Below are positions 55,352 to 62,100 of a stretch of DNA of 64,000 nucleotides, piece by piece. The translations under genes and the position numbers were made by a program. The stretch is from positions 1,706,565 through 1,770,564 of the forward strand of contig JAHBUV010000001.1 of assembly GCA_019637915.1 (NCBI GenBank), given 5' to 3'. Each line of letters opens with the position of its first letter. Position 1 is the first letter of the stretch. A model generated the notes under the pieces. The model saw only the letters and a program-made list of their open reading frames with translations, did no database searches and was not told the origin of the DNA. Origin of the DNA: Pseudobdellovibrionaceae bacterium. Its GTDB lineage: Bacteria; Bdellovibrionota; Bdellovibrionia; Bdellovibrionales; Bdellovibrionaceae.

Positions 55352-56113
55352 TTACTTCTTCCGGGTGAGTTCCACGATCTCCTCGAGCTTTTCCACGGGC
55401 TGCACTCCGCTCAGCGCAATGCCGTTGAGAATCATCGTCGGGGTTCCATTGAAGCCGAAGGCTTGGAATTCCGCCATGTCCTCTGCGACGGTCTTTTTCA
55501 CCGCGGCGGATTTGACGTCGGCGGCGAGCTTGCCGGGGTGAGCGCCAACTTGAGCGGCCGCTTTTTTCAGAAACGCTTCATCTTTCAGTTGTCTTTGATG
55601 GGCGAAGACATGCTCGTAGAACTTGAGCGCTTTGACTTTGTCCTGACGGCGGATCGCCTCGAAGTACAGCGCGGCCGGAAAGGCCATCGGGTGGAAATCG
55701 AGGGGCATGTTCTTGTAATAGACCTGGATGTCATTTTTGTGCTTTTGTTTGAACTCCTTCAATGACTCGCTCGCCATTTTGCAGGCGGGGCATTGAAAAT
55801 CCACGTACTCCACCAGCACGATGGGGGCCTTGTCGTCGCCGATCAACCTCCGCTCCTCTGAAAGCTTCGGTTGTTTGGGATTTTTCAAATCCCTCTCCTG
55901 CCCTTTTTTCATTTCAGAAGCGTGTTGTTCATATTGCGCCTGCTGGGCCTTCTGGGCCGCGCGATTGACGGATTCGATGAACCGGACGGGATTCTCCTCA
56001 ATCGCCTCGAACACGATGTCCGGATTCTTTTTGATCGCCTCGCGGATCTGGTTTTCGCTGGAAACGCAACCGGAGACGGCGAAACCACCCAATGCCAGGA
56101 TTAACTTTTTCAT
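55352..56113 (-). CDS. DsbA-like thiol-disulfide lipoprotein
   Basis: 253 aa. Lipoprotein signal (LALGGFAVSGC, Cys16), helical spacer with a KAQQAQYEQHASEMKK stretch, then a thioredoxin fold with Cys108-Pro-Ala-Cys111 (VDFQCPACKMAS) and cis-Pro GTPTMILNG. This fits the BdbD/DsbA or Com1-like lipoprotein group. The ATG overlaps the M56 peptidase stop, so it is part of the BlaI operon. Confidence 0.88.
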   Translation of the reverse strand: MKKLILALGGFAVSGCVSSENQIREAIKKNPDIVFEAIEENPVRFIESVNRAAQKAQQAQYEQHASEMKKGQERDLKNPKQPKLSEERRLIGDDKAPIVLVEYVDFQCPACKMASESLKEFKQKHKNDIQVYYKNMPLDFHPMAFPAALYFEAIRRQDKVKALKFYEHVFAHQRQLKDEAFLKKAAAQVGAHPGKLAADVKSAAVKKTVAEDMAEFQAFGFNGTPTMILNGIALSGVQPVEKLEEIVELTRKK

Positions 56114-57228
56114 CTCATCCCCTTGTTTGTCGGAATTGATTGTTTGTCGTTCTCACACCTGTTCGAATCCGGCTTTTGATTCAGCCAGGACTCCATCCAC
56201 TTTTCATGATTCCACTGGGAGCACATGAGCCCTCGAGACATGTTTCCATCGCGGCCGCCGATGGTCACACGGGCCTGCGCGGCCGAAAACCCGATTGAAA
56301 GAGAAACCGTCAGAACCAAAATCCGCCGGAATAGACTCCTCGAAACTTTCGATTTTTCAAGGGAGTTCAGGGATTCCATCCTCTCCTTGATTTCCTTGAA
56401 GCCACGACTGGCCGAAACGGATACCAGGCTGGTGGATGAGCCCGGGGCCAAAGAGACCACGTCCAAAAGCGATCGCTGAAGATCGAGCGGGCGAATGCCG
56501 GCCGCCAGCACGGATTCTTCATCCGCGGCTTTTTCCACCGTCATGTGATGCCGATGGTGAAAGAGGGCCATCAAGGGATGAAAAAACAGCGCTCTCCGGC
56601 AGAGCCTTCCCAACAACAACCAAAGAACATCGCCATCGCGCGCATGAACGAGTTCATGGCAAAGAACCGCCCGCAGGCTGTCGGCTGAAAGCTCGTTCAG
56701 CAACTTCTCTGGCATCACCACTTTGCAATTCCGAAAACCGAGGACGAAAGGACTGATTTGTTCGCCCGTCGTGTAAAACGGCATCTCCTTTGCCAGGCCC
56801 AAGCGTCTTCGGCACATCTCAAATATTTTTTGCGGCTCCGGGCTCAAGACAGGCTTGAGTCGGCGGACCTGCCGAAATGAAAGAAAAATCCTGAGGCCGT
56901 CTTGGCTCAGCAAAAATCCGAAGCCACACGCCCATATCGCCGCGATGAGGCGGGTGATGGGCAGGGAAGATCCGGCTTTCACGAAACGATCAAAACAGCC
57001 GGACGCCAGTTCCGGATCCGCGAACGCAACGAGCAAAAAACCCGCTGAAAAAACGGTCATGATCAAAACCGTCTGACTGTTCAAAAACCATTTCATCTGC
57101 AGATGGCTGGTTCTCCCCAAGAGCCAAGCCGAGACGATCCACCATAAAATCAGAGATACCGTGGCGGCCAATGTCCCGACCAGCAAACCTCGCCAGACAT
57201 AATCAAGAAACGGGAGCTCAGCCAACAT
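56110..57228 (-). CDS. BlaR1-like M56 zinc peptidase without sensor domain
   Basis: 372 aa membrane metallopeptidase of family M56. Three to four helices in the N-terminal half, then HELVHARDGD with His191-Glu192-x-x-His195 and the third-ligand region EKAADEESV. After that, a helix near 305-325 and a short tail; no penicillin-binding sensor domain. Paralogues cleave BlaI-type repressors; BlaI is directly upstream, overlapping its start by 11 bases. Its own cue is therefore unknown. Confidence 0.9.
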   Translation of the reverse strand: MLAELPFLDYVWRGLLVGTLAATVSLILWWIVSAWLLGRTSHLQMKWFLNSQTVLIMTVFSAGFLLVAFADPELASGCFDRFVKAGSSLPITRLIAAIWACGFGFLLSQDGLRIFLSFRQVRRLKPVLSPEPQKIFEMCRRRLGLAKEMPFYTTGEQISPFVLGFRNCKVVMPEKLLNELSADSLRAVLCHELVHARDGDVLWLLLGRLCRRALFFHPLMALFHHRHHMTVEKAADEESVLAAGIRPLDLQRSLLDVVSLAPGSSTSLVSVSASRGFKEIKERMESLNSLEKSKVSRSLFRRILVLTVSLSIGFSAAQARVTIGGRDGNMSRGLMCSQWNHEKWMESWLNQKPDSNRCENDKQSIPTNKGMR

Positions 57229-57616
57229 CTTCGCCCCCTTTTTTGTGCTCCATCTTCGCCATCATGTCTTTCAGCTGCGAAAGCTCTTCCGCCGTCAATT
57301 TCGAAGAGGACACAAAATAAGCGAAGAGAGGGCTGACTGAACCACCCAGGGTTTTTTCAATGAAGTTCGAGACCTTGTCGCTGAGCACTTCATTCGTTTC
57401 AAGCTTCGTGCGGTATTGAAAAATCCCGTTTTCACGGGCGCGGCTCAAGAATCCCTTTTTACGGAGCCTCTCCATGACCGTTAAAACGGTCGTGCGCGCC
57501 AGCTTCTTTTCCTTTTCAAAATGGACCGCCACGTCCCTCACGGAGAGAGGCTCATGGCCATCGACATAGCGAAGGATTTCCATTTCCTGCTCACCCAAAC
57601 TCGGCACTTTCTTCAT
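57218..57616 (-). CDS. BlaI/MecI-type repressor
   Basis: 132 aa. Winged-helix text LGEQEMEILRYVDGHEPLSV then VTTVLTVMERL-like ARTTVLTVMERLRKKGFLSR, followed by a dimerisation helix FIEKTLGGSVSPLFAYFV. ATG 57616 is chosen from domain placement; upstream in-frame codons reach 57667. Two palindromic operators sit directly ahead of its start. It controls itself, the M56 peptidase and the DsbA-like lipoprotein. Confidence 0.9.
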   Translation of the reverse strand: MKKVPSLGEQEMEILRYVDGHEPLSVRDVAVHFEKEKKLARTTVLTVMERLRKKGFLSRARENGIFQYRTKLETNEVLSDKVSNFIEKTLGGSVSPLFAYFVSSSKLTAEELSQLKDMMAKMEHKKGGEDVG

Positions 57617-57627
57617 CAGCCACCTCA

Positions 57628-57667
57628 GACTACAAATGTAGTCTAAATTGACTACGTCTGTAGTCAA
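57628..57667 (-). promoter_or_regulatory. Two BlaI-type operators overlapping the promoter
   Basis: Dyads gactacaaatgtagtc (57628-57643, perfect except central four bases) and gactacgtctgtagtc (57650-57665) match the BlaI/MecI operator pattern TACANNTGTA; centres are 22 bp apart, two helical turns. On the reverse strand TTGACT (57662-57667) and TAGACT (57640-57645), 16 apart, form a promoter that both operators overlap. Confidence 0.85.
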
Positions 57668-57870: not shown

Positions 57871-57940
57871 TAATGACTGCAACCTCCTTGGTACCTATAA
57901 GTAGTTGATAATAATAATGACTTCGTGCAGTATTTGATTT

Positions 57941-58102
57941 TGCTACAAAAAATGATTCAAAATTTGCAGCAACCTATTTGTAATTATAAGTGCTTATATT
58001 TATTAGGTATTATCATTATGGACCAGTTTTCTACAAAAAGTACTCAAAAACTTGTAGAATGATGACAGGTTTTCTACAAAATATGCAGCAAATTTTGCAG
58101 AT
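57941..58102. promoter_or_regulatory. Three matched 31-bp dyads upstream of the Fic gene
   Basis: Each is eight bases, fifteen bases, eight bases: TGCTACAA/TTGCAGCA (57941-57971), TTCTACAA/TTGTAGAA (58029-58059, perfect) and TTCTACAA/TTGCAGAT (58072-58102). Centres are 88 and 43 bases apart; the third ends 17 bases before the Fic ATG. This suggests a regulator that binds repeatedly in the leader, perhaps the Fic protein itself through its C-terminal HTH. Confidence 0.6.
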
Positions 58103-58119
58103 AAAGTTGCGGGTATAAA

Positions 58120-59364
58120 ATGAGCAAAGACGACTTTGATTTCTTAAATTCGGACATCTGGCTCAACTACACCCAGCAAAGCTATCGATCTCCTGAAGAG
58201 ATCAGGTATCGACTTCAGGAGAAAAATAAAAAGCCGAAAGATTGGGAATCAGTGGCGAGAAAGATCGTCGCTATTCGAAAAACCAATGCGATCACACTGT
58301 TCATCGATTCGATTGCACCGAGGTTTTGGTTTTATCCTGCTGACAGCATTCTACGGAAAATTAATGAAATCGACCGAATCGGAACTGCTCTATACGAAAG
58401 GATTCGGCGTGCGACATTTGAACAAGAGTTTCTATTAAATTCGAGAATTGAAGAGGCGATCACTTCTGCAATTTACGAAGGTGCTCACAGTACGAGAGCA
58501 CAAGCAAAGCAGCTAATCGCGTCCAAGGAAACACCCAAGAACAAAGATGAGTGGATGCTCATCAATAACCTTCTGGCCATGAATTGGGTGAAGGATCACA
58601 ATCAAGAAACCCTTTCCAAAGACACGATCCTTACCCTTCATGAAATTGTAACTCGGAACACTCTCGAAGGTGATGACGTCAACTACTCAGGTCGGTTTCG
58701 CGACGACACGGTGAGTGTCGGTCCGCATGAAGGAATTCAATACGATTTGATTGAGACCGCTATCAATCAAATGATCAAACTCATTACTCAGAATAGACGT
58801 TACATACATCCAATTATTAGAGGCGTACTCATCCACTACTTCATTGCATATATTCATCCGTTCTTCGACGGAAACGGGCGAACTGCCAGAGCACTCTTCT
58901 ATTTCAAATCAATGAAACACAATTTGAAGTATGTTGAGTTACTTTCCGTCTCTGCCTACTTGAAACAGCATGGGGAGCAATATGAAAAGGCATTTCAAAA
59001 AGTCGTAGAGAACGAATACGACGTGACCTACTTCATCGATTTTTGCCTAGACTCGATGCTCTCAGCATTAAAACAGGTAGAGAAGAAGATTACTTATTTA
59101 ATTCGAATGGCTGACCTAAAGCAGCGGTTCAAGCTTAACGACAATCAGCTTGGATTACTTCAACGGATGGCTCTCAATAAGTTCCGATTCGTACATATCG
59201 AAGAGTATGCAGCACAGATCAAAATGTCTCGTGAGACTGCCCGGCAAGATTTAAAGGAACTCCAAGATCAAGGTCTGTTGATCGAATTCAAGTCTGGCAA
59301 GAAGCTCTGCTACAAGGTCAACGCAGAGAAGCTAAGAGAGCTTTATAAAGATCCAGGTGTTTAG
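58120..59364 (+). CDS. Fic/DOC-family protein with N-terminal inhibition motif and C-terminal HTH
   Basis: 414 aa, predicted AMP-transferase. Fic motif HPFFDGNGRTAR starts at His246, with Asp250 and the GNGR anion hole. The inhibition helix motif S-x-x-x-E-G is at Ser116-Glu120-Gly121 (ITSAIYEGAH), so it is a class II, self-inhibited form. The last 75 or so residues have a DeoR-like winged helix, YAAQIKMSRETARQDLKELQ. AT-rich relative to genes before 57.7 kb, so likely acquired. Alone, without an adjacent antitoxin gene. Confidence 0.88.
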   Translation: MSKDDFDFLNSDIWLNYTQQSYRSPEEIRYRLQEKNKKPKDWESVARKIVAIRKTNAITLFIDSIAPRFWFYPADSILRKINEIDRIGTALYERIRRATFEQEFLLNSRIEEAITSAIYEGAHSTRAQAKQLIASKETPKNKDEWMLINNLLAMNWVKDHNQETLSKDTILTLHEIVTRNTLEGDDVNYSGRFRDDTVSVGPHEGIQYDLIETAINQMIKLITQNRRYIHPIIRGVLIHYFIAYIHPFFDGNGRTARALFYFKSMKHNLKYVELLSVSAYLKQHGEQYEKAFQKVVENEYDVTYFIDFCLDSMLSALKQVEKKITYLIRMADLKQRFKLNDNQLGLLQRMALNKFRFVHIEEYAAQIKMSRETARQDLKELQDQGLLIEFKSGKKLCYKVNAEKLRELYKDPGV

Positions 59365-59691: not shown

Positions 59692-60282
59692 ATGAAAACC
59701 GCAATTCTGTTTTTTAGTCTTTTAGTAGGCGGCTTCGCCCATGCACAAGTTATCGCAGACACGTTTGAGTGCCGAGCCAAAATAGTTGATCTTAAAACAA
59801 ATGACACCGCAGAAAGTGTCGGCATGGCGGCAGGCCATCGCATAGTGACGCCGATAGATTCCTCAACAGGACAACCATATCCATCAAATATGGAAGTCTC
59901 TAAAGGCGAGGCTAAACTAAGTTTGGCGCTTAACGGAAAAATAAATTCATACAAAGTTGATTTCAATCTTCAGTATGGATTTGCTAAACGTTCTCTTCCA
60001 AATCCCACTGAAGCTCGACAGTATGTTTGCAATCAAGTTACACTTCAAAGTTGTCAGAATGGTGAGATGGGTTCGTGTGCCGCTGCGAGCACAATTTGCG
60101 TAGTAATTCCAGATCCTTTTGATCCTAAATATGGGTGGAGCGAAACAATCTTAATTCAAAAAGTCCCAGTGTTTAATGAAAAACTTTTGCGTCCTCTCGA
60201 TACAATCGTTCCGATTGATCCAAATGACCCTAATGGAGCACGCGTAACTGTCTCTTGCAAATTTCAAGGAACATACCTCTAA
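59692..60282 (+). CDS. Exported hypothetical protein, regulator-associated
   Basis: 196 aa. Signal peptide of about 19 residues (MKTAILFFSLLVGGFAHA), then ADTFECRAKIVDLK and a four-Cys region around QVTLQSCQNGEMGSCAAAS. Probably disulfide-bonded, with DTFECRAK resembling the RDSFECTIRSG text of the 61090 protein. ATG has aaggag ten bases upstream. It stands two bases ahead of a TIGR02147 regulator. Confidence 0.72.
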   Translation: MKTAILFFSLLVGGFAHAQVIADTFECRAKIVDLKTNDTAESVGMAAGHRIVTPIDSSTGQPYPSNMEVSKGEAKLSLALNGKINSYKVDFNLQYGFAKRSLPNPTEARQYVCNQVTLQSCQNGEMGSCAAASTICVVIPDPFDPKYGWSETILIQKVPVFNEKLLRPLDTIVPIDPNDPNGARVTVSCKFQGTYL

Positions 60283-60284
60283 CG

Positions 60285-61103
60285 ATGCAATCAGTTAGAC
60301 CTGTTGTTTTTGATTATACTGACCCGTCAGAATTCCTCCGAGACCTTGGCGAGCACAATAGAGAAACTCGCCGAGGTTTCAGTGTTCGTGCCAGATCAAA
60401 AGATATGGTCGGGTGCTCGCCTGCTCTTATTTCACAAGTTTTAAAAGGTCAGAGAAAACTAAAACGTGACCAACTGTTAAATTTCGCAAAAGTCTTTGGG
60501 CTAACAACCACCGAAGTAAACCACATCGACAATCTTCTTAAGTCAGAACAAACGCAAGGTGCGCTTAGTGACTTTTCTATTCCTACAAAGGAAGCAACAG
60601 CAAAAGTTCCTAAAAATCATCTTTTGGCTGATTGGTTGCATCCCTACGTAAAAGACCTTATTGAGCTAAAAGATTTTAAGCTTGATGTGAAATGGATGCT
60701 TCAGCATCTGGGCTTCGCAGCAACTCCACCTAAAATTGAAAAATCAGTTCAATTTCTTCTCAAGGAAGGGTTCTGGAGAAAAACTCCCGAAGGGAAAATT
60801 GTTCCTGAAGAAGCAGCAGTCGTGACGACAAATGAGATTCCAAATGAAAAAATTAAAGCCTTTCATAAGCAGGCATTAAAAATTGCAGCAAAAGGCTTGG
60901 AAGAGTTTCCTGTAAATCGGCGTAAAGCTTCAACCATTCTCGTCGCCGTTAATGAGGACTCAAAAGAAGAACTGAAAGCTCTCATCAATAAATTTCAAAG
61001 TGATTTGGTTTCATTTATGGAAAATCATTCGCAGGACAAGGACGAACTTATGCAAGTGACGATTCACATGACTCCAATCGGAGGACAAGATGTCAAAAAG
61101 TAA
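60285..61103 (+). CDS. TIGR02147-family HTH transcriptional regulator
   Basis: 272 aa from ATG 60285; a 30-base in-frame upstream extension overlaps the previous gene and lacks sense. HTH at about residues 32-72 (GCSPALISQVLKGQRKLKRD), then WLHPYVKDLIELKDFKLD, FHKQALKIAAKGLEEFPVN and TILVAVNEDSKEELKALINK, as in TIGR02147. AT-rich codon use differs from the similar regulator at 5987-6751. It overlaps the following GNGG gene by 14 bases. Confidence 0.86.
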   Translation: MQSVRPVVFDYTDPSEFLRDLGEHNRETRRGFSVRARSKDMVGCSPALISQVLKGQRKLKRDQLLNFAKVFGLTTTEVNHIDNLLKSEQTQGALSDFSIPTKEATAKVPKNHLLADWLHPYVKDLIELKDFKLDVKWMLQHLGFAATPPKIEKSVQFLLKEGFWRKTPEGKIVPEEAAVVTTNEIPNEKIKAFHKQALKIAAKGLEEFPVNRRKASTILVAVNEDSKEELKALINKFQSDLVSFMENHSQDKDELMQVTIHMTPIGGQDVKK

Positions 61104-62100
61104 AATAATTTTATTTCTATATTTAATGTGTCCTGCATTTTCTTTTGCGGGAACAGTGGTTGGAAATGGTGGGGAGCCTATTCTACATTATTTAGAGGCT
61201 TCACGTTTCGCTCTTATTGAAACACTCAGAGATATTCATAATGATCCAAAAAAGAATGCTGAGTTTTGCTCTAAGGAGTCACAACTCAATGCCGATCAGA
61301 AAAATTTCTGCCGTGAGTATTTATTGGAAATTTTAGATCAAGTCATCACGCTGAACCTTGAACCGAAAAAAGTTCCCTTTGTTCTGAGAGAAGACCCTTT
61401 GCTTGTGGTTGGGCCAGATGGAAAACCGATGCCAGTTTCTGCAAGAACTGAACTCGGCGACCAAGGGCCTATTGAGTTTCATCTTGATTCTATTAAGTTG
61501 ATGGCTCCTAAAGACCTTTTGCAATTGGTAGCACACGAATTTCAACATAAAATCACTTATAAAAACAGCAGTCCGACAGACAATGATCCTATTGGGCCGT
61601 TTCAATATGGACGATTTTTGATTGATTCTGTAGCATCTGCTATCGTGAAAGTGGCTATTGAAACTGGAAGGATTGGCACGCAGCTTGTTCTTCGGGATAG
61701 TTTTGAATGCACCATCCGCTCGGGTTCATCGCAATTTGGAATGAGGGCCTCAACGCAAAGATGGTTTTTTGATTCTTCTCTTACAAGCTACAAAACAAGT
61801 CTTAGCGAACTGCCGACAGACCCATTTATTTTTGTTTCAGAGACCATCGATTCAAAAATTGTTTTTCAGCTCAACATTACTGATAAGAATCACTGCCAAA
61901 ATCTGAATGATGCCAGCTTACGACAATCTCGTTTGGCCTTGTGGAGAGTATTCAATAATCCTCAAACACCATCGCAATTGATTTCTGAACAAAAGCTGCC
62001 TGGAGTGAATCCTCTGTGCGAAAAAGTATCACCGCTTTTCACAGCAGACTTTCAAGCCATTCATTTTGATTGCAAGTATTACGGGACTGAGGCTCACTAA
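61090..62100 (+). CDS. Exported GNGG-family protein with HExxH
   Basis: 336 aa. Signal peptide (about residues 1-20) then TVVGNGGEPILHYLE (GNGG at 25-28). VAHEFQHKITYK holds an HExxH motif at His149-Glu150-x-x-His153, followed by GPFQYGRFLIDSVASAIV; hence a candidate zinc peptidase. The C-terminal half is a separate domain with RDSFECTIRSGSSQF. It overlaps the TIGR02147 gene and has the same regulator-plus-GNGG arrangement as 4692-6751. No catalytic assignment beyond the motif. Confidence 0.75.
   Translation: MSKSKIILFLYLMCPAFSFAGTVVGNGGEPILHYLEASRFALIETLRDIHNDPKKNAEFCSKESQLNADQKNFCREYLLEILDQVITLNLEPKKVPFVLREDPLLVVGPDGKPMPVSARTELGDQGPIEFHLDSIKLMAPKDLLQLVAHEFQHKITYKNSSPTDNDPIGPFQYGRFLIDSVASAIVKVAIETGRIGTQLVLRDSFECTIRSGSSQFGMRASTQRWFFDSSLTSYKTSLSELPTDPFIFVSETIDSKIVFQLNITDKNHCQNLNDASLRQSRLALWRVFNNPQTPSQLISEQKLPGVNPLCEKVSPLFTADFQAIHFDCKYYGTEAH

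What the first reader, a model, noticed from the sequence alone, without database searches (positions are those of the whole stretch)
57941..58120. Three evenly built dyads before a self-inhibited Fic gene with an HTH
Each dyad has 8-15-8 geometry with CTACAA/TTG(T/C)AG half-sites. The Fic protein carries a C-terminal winged helix that could bind them, giving an autoregulated AMPylator. DeoR-like HTH fused to Fic is known, but operator arrays for it are not well defined.
Basis: partly seen in the sequence, partly recalled or inferred. Interest (0 to 1): 0.6.

Follow-up and report, generated by a model that had tools for sequence, protein, structure and literature searches.

The report
Operator array of a self-regulating Fic gene
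In front of a gene for a protein-modifying Fic enzyme that carries its own DNA-binding tail lies a cluster of paired DNA signals, conserved in the same enzyme's relatives and seemingly nowhere else in the genome, so the enzyme most likely sits on them to keep its own gene turned down.

Summary
Window 57943-57969, 58031-58057 and 58074-58100 each carry CTACAA-N15-TTG(T/C)AG, and no other place in this 3.3-Mb genome matches. The gene behind them (58120-59364) is a class II Fic protein (HPFFDGNGR, inhibitory SAIYEG) with a C-terminal winged helix. Nineteen distinct full-length orthologue leaders from Bdellovibrionota were examined: 19 of 19 carry such a dyad (shuffles: 0.1 hits per set), although gene neighbourhoods are not conserved. 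In orthologue-bearing genomes the motif sits at fic and otherwise occurs at chance level.

The start-proximal dyad is usually a tetrad of half-sites, F-6-F-3-R-6-R (two dyads offset by 12 bp); in the window 58074-58112. A promoter-like module lies 53 bp before the leading dyads, in fixed register.

Best reading: a Fic dimer represses its own promoter. CccR of Yersinia, also Fic plus C-terminal HTH, is a published autorepressor (PMC9755527), so the kind is known. The geometry (N15 against N26), the array, the tetrad and the clade are new. Binding was not tested.

The parts
57943..57969 (+). distal dyad 1, CTACAA-N15-TTGCAG (outer extension TTG...CAA, 57940-57972)
57978..58002 (+). single half-site TTGTAA plus promoter-like module TTATAAGTGCTTATATTTA, 53 bp before dyad 2 (TTGYAR-N47-CTACAA spacing kept in orthologues)
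57890..57914 (+). same promoter-like module 53 bp before dyad 1, degenerate; overlaps a sigma-70-like match TTGGTA-N16-AATAAT 57888-57915 (promoter matches found at chance level)
58031..58057 (+). dyad 2, CTACAA-N15-TTGTAG, perfect 8-bp arms
58074..58112 (+). start-proximal tetrad of half-sites F1 CTACAA (58074) - 6 - F2 CAGCAA (58086) - 3 - R1 TTGCAG (58095) - 6 - R2 TTGCGG (58107); dyad 3 of the finding is F1/R1
58120..59364 (+). fic gene, 414 aa: class II Fic domain (SAIYEG; HPFFDGNGRTAR) plus C-terminal winged helix (residues ~341-400), the presumed binder of the array

Best explanation
The array is the operator region of a negatively autoregulated Fic-winged-helix protein. A dimer places one winged helix on each half-site of a dyad. 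The half-sites are 21 bp apart (two turns, about 71 A, one face of the DNA). Distal dyad(s) flank a promoter module, and a proximal tetrad covers the stretch between promoter and start codon. Filling them by two or more dimers blocks transcription, so the amount of a potentially toxic AMP-transferase is held low. Shown here: the sites, their conservation, their restriction to this gene, the tetrad, and the domain make-up. Inferred: that Fic is the binder, that the effect is repression, the dimer geometry, the promoter position, and AMPylation itself.
For: 19 of 19 orthologue leaders carry a dyad scoring above 11 bits (0.1 expected, max 2 in 200 shuffles of the whole set). This includes 6 of 6 leaders without any exact dyad (L006, L008, L010, L023, L024, L032). 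Flanking genes are not shared (one pair with a hit among 133 flank frames), so gene and leader travel together. In 20 orthologue-bearing genomes CTACAA-N15-16-TTGYAG lies at fic in 12 genomes (19 sites, plus 1 before the gapped fic of G360), and elsewhere at 22 places in all, no more than the backwards control. In 196 relatives, 7 of 7 exact palindromes in the 10 orthologue genomes are at fic. The 19 places in 186 other genomes look like chance: the 16 of them examined lie in open frames of 200 aa or more, with no Fic nearby. Proximal dyads carry an extra half-site at +12 in 9 of 16 and at +33 in 7 of 16 (about 0.3 expected each), distal dyads in fewer than 3 of 23. The model matches CbFic2 8cil (Z 18.7, rmsd 4.3, 321 aligned) and SoFic 3zcn (Z 17.9, rmsd 7.0, 305 aligned) over both domains. 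Precedent: CccR represses its own promoter through inverted repeats, with 70.2 A between recognition helices in its dimer (PMC9755527, passages).
Against: No binding or expression data. Half-site and recognition-helix covariation rests on 2-3 outliers. L023 changed its half-site to TTACAA without an evident helix change. Of 5 examined plasmid-borne distant Fic relatives, 3 lack such dyads, so the array is a feature of this clade, not of all Fic-HTH proteins. CbFic2 binds random DNA with nanomolar affinity (PMC10628234, passages), so wHTH Fics need not be sequence-specific. R2 and F2 of the window tetrad are each one base off the half-site.
Confidence: 0.8

Rival explanations
1. The dyads bind another, widespread regulator of the host (or a co-travelling one), and Fic is only its target.
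For: Binding was not shown; other HTH proteins are encoded nearby (BlaI-like at 57218-57667, TIGR02147-type at 60255-61103).
Against: Sites are confined to fic and otherwise at chance level, which does not fit a regulator with other targets. Neighbour genes are not conserved across orthologues. The BlaI-like gene has its own different dyads at 57628-57665. The target protein itself has a winged helix.
Confidence: 0.12
2. The dyads act in RNA, as hairpins or attenuators in the fic leader.
For: Inverted repeats downstream of a possible promoter could be transcribed; dyad 2 folds to -7.9 kcal/mol.
Against: RNA folds are ordinary against shuffles (z -0.8, -1.9, -0.4). No terminator-like site was found. 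Among 21 exact dyads, 4 carry an A/C mismatch and 1 a G/U, tolerated as by a protein. The interleaved tetrad cannot form as one hairpin. Spacer length, not sequence, is kept.
Confidence: 0.04
3. Fic activates rather than represses its gene, or switches between both as the sites fill (low: distal dyad, activation; high: proximal tetrad, repression).
For: Distal dyads lie upstream of the second promoter-like module in two-unit leaders, about where an activator could sit; the proximal tetrad differs from the distal dyad.
Against: CccR is reported as an autorepressor (PMC9755527, passages); no positional evidence for contact with RNA polymerase.
Confidence: 0.1

Closest known systems
CccR (YPK_0951) of Yersinia pseudotuberculosis, PMC9755527
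   Same: Class II Fic domain plus C-terminal HTH; negative autoregulation through an inverted repeat in its own promoter; dimer needed; toxic when overproduced (passages read).
   Different: One 10-bp repeat with a 26-bp spacer (AGATAATCAT) against an array of CTACAA-N15-TTGTAG dyads plus a tetrad; secreted by T6SS. The crystal-structure match 7xux (title 'FIC domain containing protein'; that it is CccR is my recall) scores Z 15.6, rmsd 11.0, 294 aligned.
SoFic (SO_4266) and PADLOC family SoFic
   Same: Best defence-library match, E 4e-40 over residues 67-398; same two-domain fold, 3zcn Z 17.9, rmsd 7.0, 305 aligned.
   Different: Well below the NCBIfam cut-off for SoFic (60 against 550 bits); about 15% identity in the structural alignment; DNA binding not shown for SoFic according to PMC10628234 (passage).
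CbFic2 of Coxiella burnetii, PMC10628234
   Same: Fic plus winged helix, dimer, DNA-binding; nearest solved fold (8cil, Z 18.7, rmsd 4.3, 321 aligned).
   Different: Reported with random DNA and no defined operator; AMPylates histone H3 (passages).

Membership tests
Class II Fic (Fido) AMP-transferase | HPFx[D/E]GN[G/K]R motif | tested here: met
   HPFFDGNGR in the window; HP[FY]FDGNGR in 19 of 19 orthologues
Class II Fic (Fido) AMP-transferase | N-terminal inhibitory (S/T)xxxE(G/N) | tested here: met
   SAIYEG or SALYEG in 19 of 19
Class II Fic (Fido) AMP-transferase | AMPylation of a protein target | not testable with these tools
   needs a biochemical assay
Autoregulating Fic-HTH protein (CccR kind) | C-terminal winged helix in the Fic polypeptide | tested here: met
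   HTH_DeoR 2.6e-07; model residues 341-400 wHTH, block pLDDT 76-91; SoFic/CbFic2 fold
Autoregulating Fic-HTH protein (CccR kind) | inverted repeats before its own gene | tested here: met
   window array; 19 of 19 orthologue leaders
Autoregulating Fic-HTH protein (CccR kind) | binds them and represses | not testable with these tools
   no binding or reporter data
SoFic equivalog (NCBIfam NF046030) | score above the curated cut-off of 550 bits | tested here: not met
   60.4 bits; so a relative, not a SoFic in that narrow sense

The most novel reading that the evidence does not exclude
The array is more than an autorepression site: it works as the antitoxin-like partner of a one-gene system. Cooperative parking of Fic dimers on dyads and tetrad holds the enzyme off its targets, or sets its catalytic state (as DNA is reported to do for CbFic2). 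Loss or titration of the sites, for instance during phage takeover, then both releases enzyme and opens its promoter.
Probability: 0.12. Interest if true: 0.8.

Novelty: new variant of a known kind. Interest (0 to 1): 0.45.

Why it matters
Proteins that join a Fic AMP-transferase to a winged helix are widely distributed, yet the operator of only one (CccR) turned up in my searches. Here a whole clade gives a precise, testable binding code: half-site TTT(G/T)CT(A/g)CAAww, N15-16 spacing, a start-proximal tetrad with 12-bp offset, and a promoter module in fixed register. It suggests that such a gene moves between genomes together with its private operator and without a conserved second gene. It also offers natural half-site variants (CTCCAA, CTGCTA, TTACAA) for testing recognition.

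Tried and rejected
Regulon idea: no further sites above chance in the own genome or in 20 orthologue genomes; rejected for strong sites. RNA hairpin or attenuator: weak folds. Phage or viral origin: no relative in viral contigs; only 24-31% matches in 6 phage records and 26-32% matches in 18 plasmid records. Orthologues outside Bdellovibrionota: none found; all six genome-contig loci are from that group by their titles.

Second clade test: the distant Fic L012 (32% identity) has its own dyads (CAACTACTAA...TTAGTAGTTG), but its protein had no further member in 368 genomes, so no family could be built. Other distant Fics: L071 has a TTAACTCAAT-N10-ATTGAGTTAA dyad, L013 only direct repeats TTGGCGA, L070, L072 and L073 nothing comparable before the start, L069 a dyad that looks like an upstream terminator (reading of the printed leaders); L074 was fetched but not examined.

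Promoter: the consensus scan is at chance level, so the fixed-register module is called promoter-like only. Single-helix covariation: dyads with C at the third base (CTCCAA/TTGGAG) occur only in L010 and L032, the two with non-Arg at the residue matching R371. But TTGGAG alone also occurs in L011 and CTCCAA alone in L019, and L023 changed its site without a helix change. Suggestive only.

Rows left out: L028 and L029 duplicate L019 and L018; L014-L017 duplicate L003-L006; L031 has an N gap; L033 and L034 are cut at contig ends. One search treated the only dyad of L008, L030 and L032 as distal. One search used 29 of 39 dyads (those not closely behind another). These choices were made by hand. 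Mono- and dinucleotide shuffles do not remove relatedness between leaders; some leaders (L001, L003, L004, L005) still align over 76-128 bp.

Full report
Observation. The three dyads are real and lie at 57943-57969, 58031-58057 and 58074-58100, that is 177, 89 and 46 bases before the ATG at 58120. In the whole 3.3-Mb genome CTACAA-N12-16-TTGYAG has exactly three places, these. With a longer motif and up to three mismatches, ten other places appear, about what the backwards control gives (10 against 7).

The gene. The 414-aa product has a Fic domain (E 2.3e-16) and a DeoR-like HTH (E 2.6e-07). Its alignment with 18 orthologues shows HP[FY]FDGNGR and SA(I/L)YEG in 19 of 19, the marks of a class II, self-inhibited Fic protein. 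A structure model (mean pLDDT 71; winged-helix part 76-91) resembles Coxiella CbFic2 (8cil, Z 18.7, rmsd 4.3 A, 321 residues) and Shewanella SoFic (3zcn, Z 17.9, rmsd 7.0 A, 305 residues) over Fic domain and winged helix. The defence library calls it SoFic-like (E 4e-40); it falls far short of NCBI's narrow SoFic model.

Orthologues. 22 of 368 genomes of the phylum, including this one, have a match at E <= 1e-50; six loci from the named collection are MAGs titled Bdellovibrionaceae, Bdellovibrio, Oligoflexia, Halobacteriovoraceae and Bacteriovoracaceae. After removing duplicates and cut copies, 19 leaders with full genes remain, the other 18 being 45-66% identical in protein to the window's. 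21 exact CTRCAA-N14-16-TTGYAG dyads lie in 13 of 19 leaders, against 0.017 in dinucleotide shuffles. With a weight matrix, 19 of 19 leaders have a dyad above 11 bits, against 0.1 hits per shuffled set. The neighbouring genes are unrelated between loci, save one pair: the fic gene moves alone with its leader.

Locus specificity. In 196 relatives the perfect CTACAA-N15-TTGTAG was found 7 times in the 10 genomes with an orthologue, all 7 before fic, and 19 times in the other 186 genomes. Sixteen of those 19 were examined: all lie in open frames of at least 200 aa and none has a Fic relative within the fetched locus. In 20 orthologue genomes the wider pattern lies before fic at 19 places in 12 genomes, plus one before the gapped copy of G360, and at 22 other places in some 68 Mb, no more than the reversed control (my count from its list). 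So the motif behaves as a private operator of this gene.

Anatomy beyond the finding. (a) Half-sites: TTT(G/T)CT(A/g)CAA followed by four A/T. Core centres are 21 bp apart, two turns, about 71 A by arithmetic. (b) Of 16 start-proximal dyads, 9 have a further forward half-site exactly 12 bp downstream and 7 a further reverse half-site at +33; 23 distal dyads do not show them (fewer than 3). The proximal operator is thus F-6-F-3-R-6-R, two dyads interleaved with a 12-bp offset. In the window it reads CTACAA-6-CAGCAA-3-TTGCAG-6-TTGCGG, 58074-58112, ending 7 bases before the ATG. (c) TTGYA(G/A)-N47-(C/T)TRCAA recurs 9 times at exactly 47. Lined up on 29 dyads without gaps, the stretch -53 to -29 reads about TTGYAG-TTRTAA-N5-TRAATTTA, with 9.4 bits in register against 2.2 (sd 0.4, max 3.6) when rows are jittered. 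I take it for the core promoter region with a half-site at or near its -35 end. A sigma-70 consensus scan gives no support above chance, so this is inference. In five leaders the two first dyads are 88-89 bp apart (L001, L003, L004, L005, L007).

Mechanism. The simplest reading is negative autoregulation: Fic dimers fill the distal dyad and the proximal tetrad around the promoter and shut it, keeping a potentially toxic AMP-transferase scarce. RNA hairpins are unlikely. Another regulator is unlikely, given the private distribution. Binding and repression are not shown here.

What is known. CccR of Yersinia pseudotuberculosis is a class II Fic protein with a C-terminal HTH that represses its own promoter by binding AGATAATCAT-N26-ATGATAATCT, with 70.2 A between recognition helices (PMC9755527, passages read). 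The authors state that Fic proteins with HTH domains are widely distributed. CbFic2 binds random DNA with nanomolar affinity; its paper says SoFic DNA binding had not been shown (PMC10628234, passages). A class II Fic system is described as active against phage T5, and the S. thermophilus standalone systems including SoFic gave minimal effect in those tests (PMC11514479, passages). Searches for Fic with operator/autoregulation, helix-turn-helix plus promoter, Bdellovibrio, autorepress, wHTH plus inverted repeat, and repressor/dimer (listings only, PMC open-licence papers only) gave no description of this clade's array. So: same kind as CccR, new variant in operator geometry, multiplicity and clade.

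Verdict. Observation confirmed, interpretation supported by comparative evidence, novelty moderate.

Noticed in passing
window 57628-57665: Two adjacent perfect 16-bp dyads GACTAC-N4-GTAGTC, 22 bp apart, just before the BlaI/MecI-like repressor gene (minus strand, 57218-57667) that is paired with an M56 BlaR1-like peptidase (56110-57228): an ordinary BlaI-type operator pair by its look, also rich in CTACA.
   Followed up: partly
L012 (unnamed relative), about 20-110 bases before its fic start: A distant Fic-wHTH gene (32% identity) has its own dyads CAACTACTAA...TTAGTAGTTG and CTAATTACTA...TAGTAATTAG: same idea, other letters.
   Followed up: partly
L071, about 35 bases before the Fic gene of a Klebsiella plasmid: Perfect TTAACTCAAT-N10-ATTGAGTTAA dyad directly before the start of a Fic family gene.
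   Followed up: no
L023 leader: An orthologue that shows no CTRCAA or TTGYAG in its 300-base leader; it uses TTACAA/TTGTAA half-sites in the same 15-bp geometry with an unremarkable recognition helix.
   Followed up: partly
window 60255-61103 and 61090-62100: TIGR02147/DUF4423 HTH protein, followed by a 336-aa protein without a Pfam or NCBIfam match.
   Followed up: no
L069 (Ilyobacter plasmid pILYOP02): Two Fic family genes face each other within 500 bp on a conjugative plasmid.
   Followed up: no
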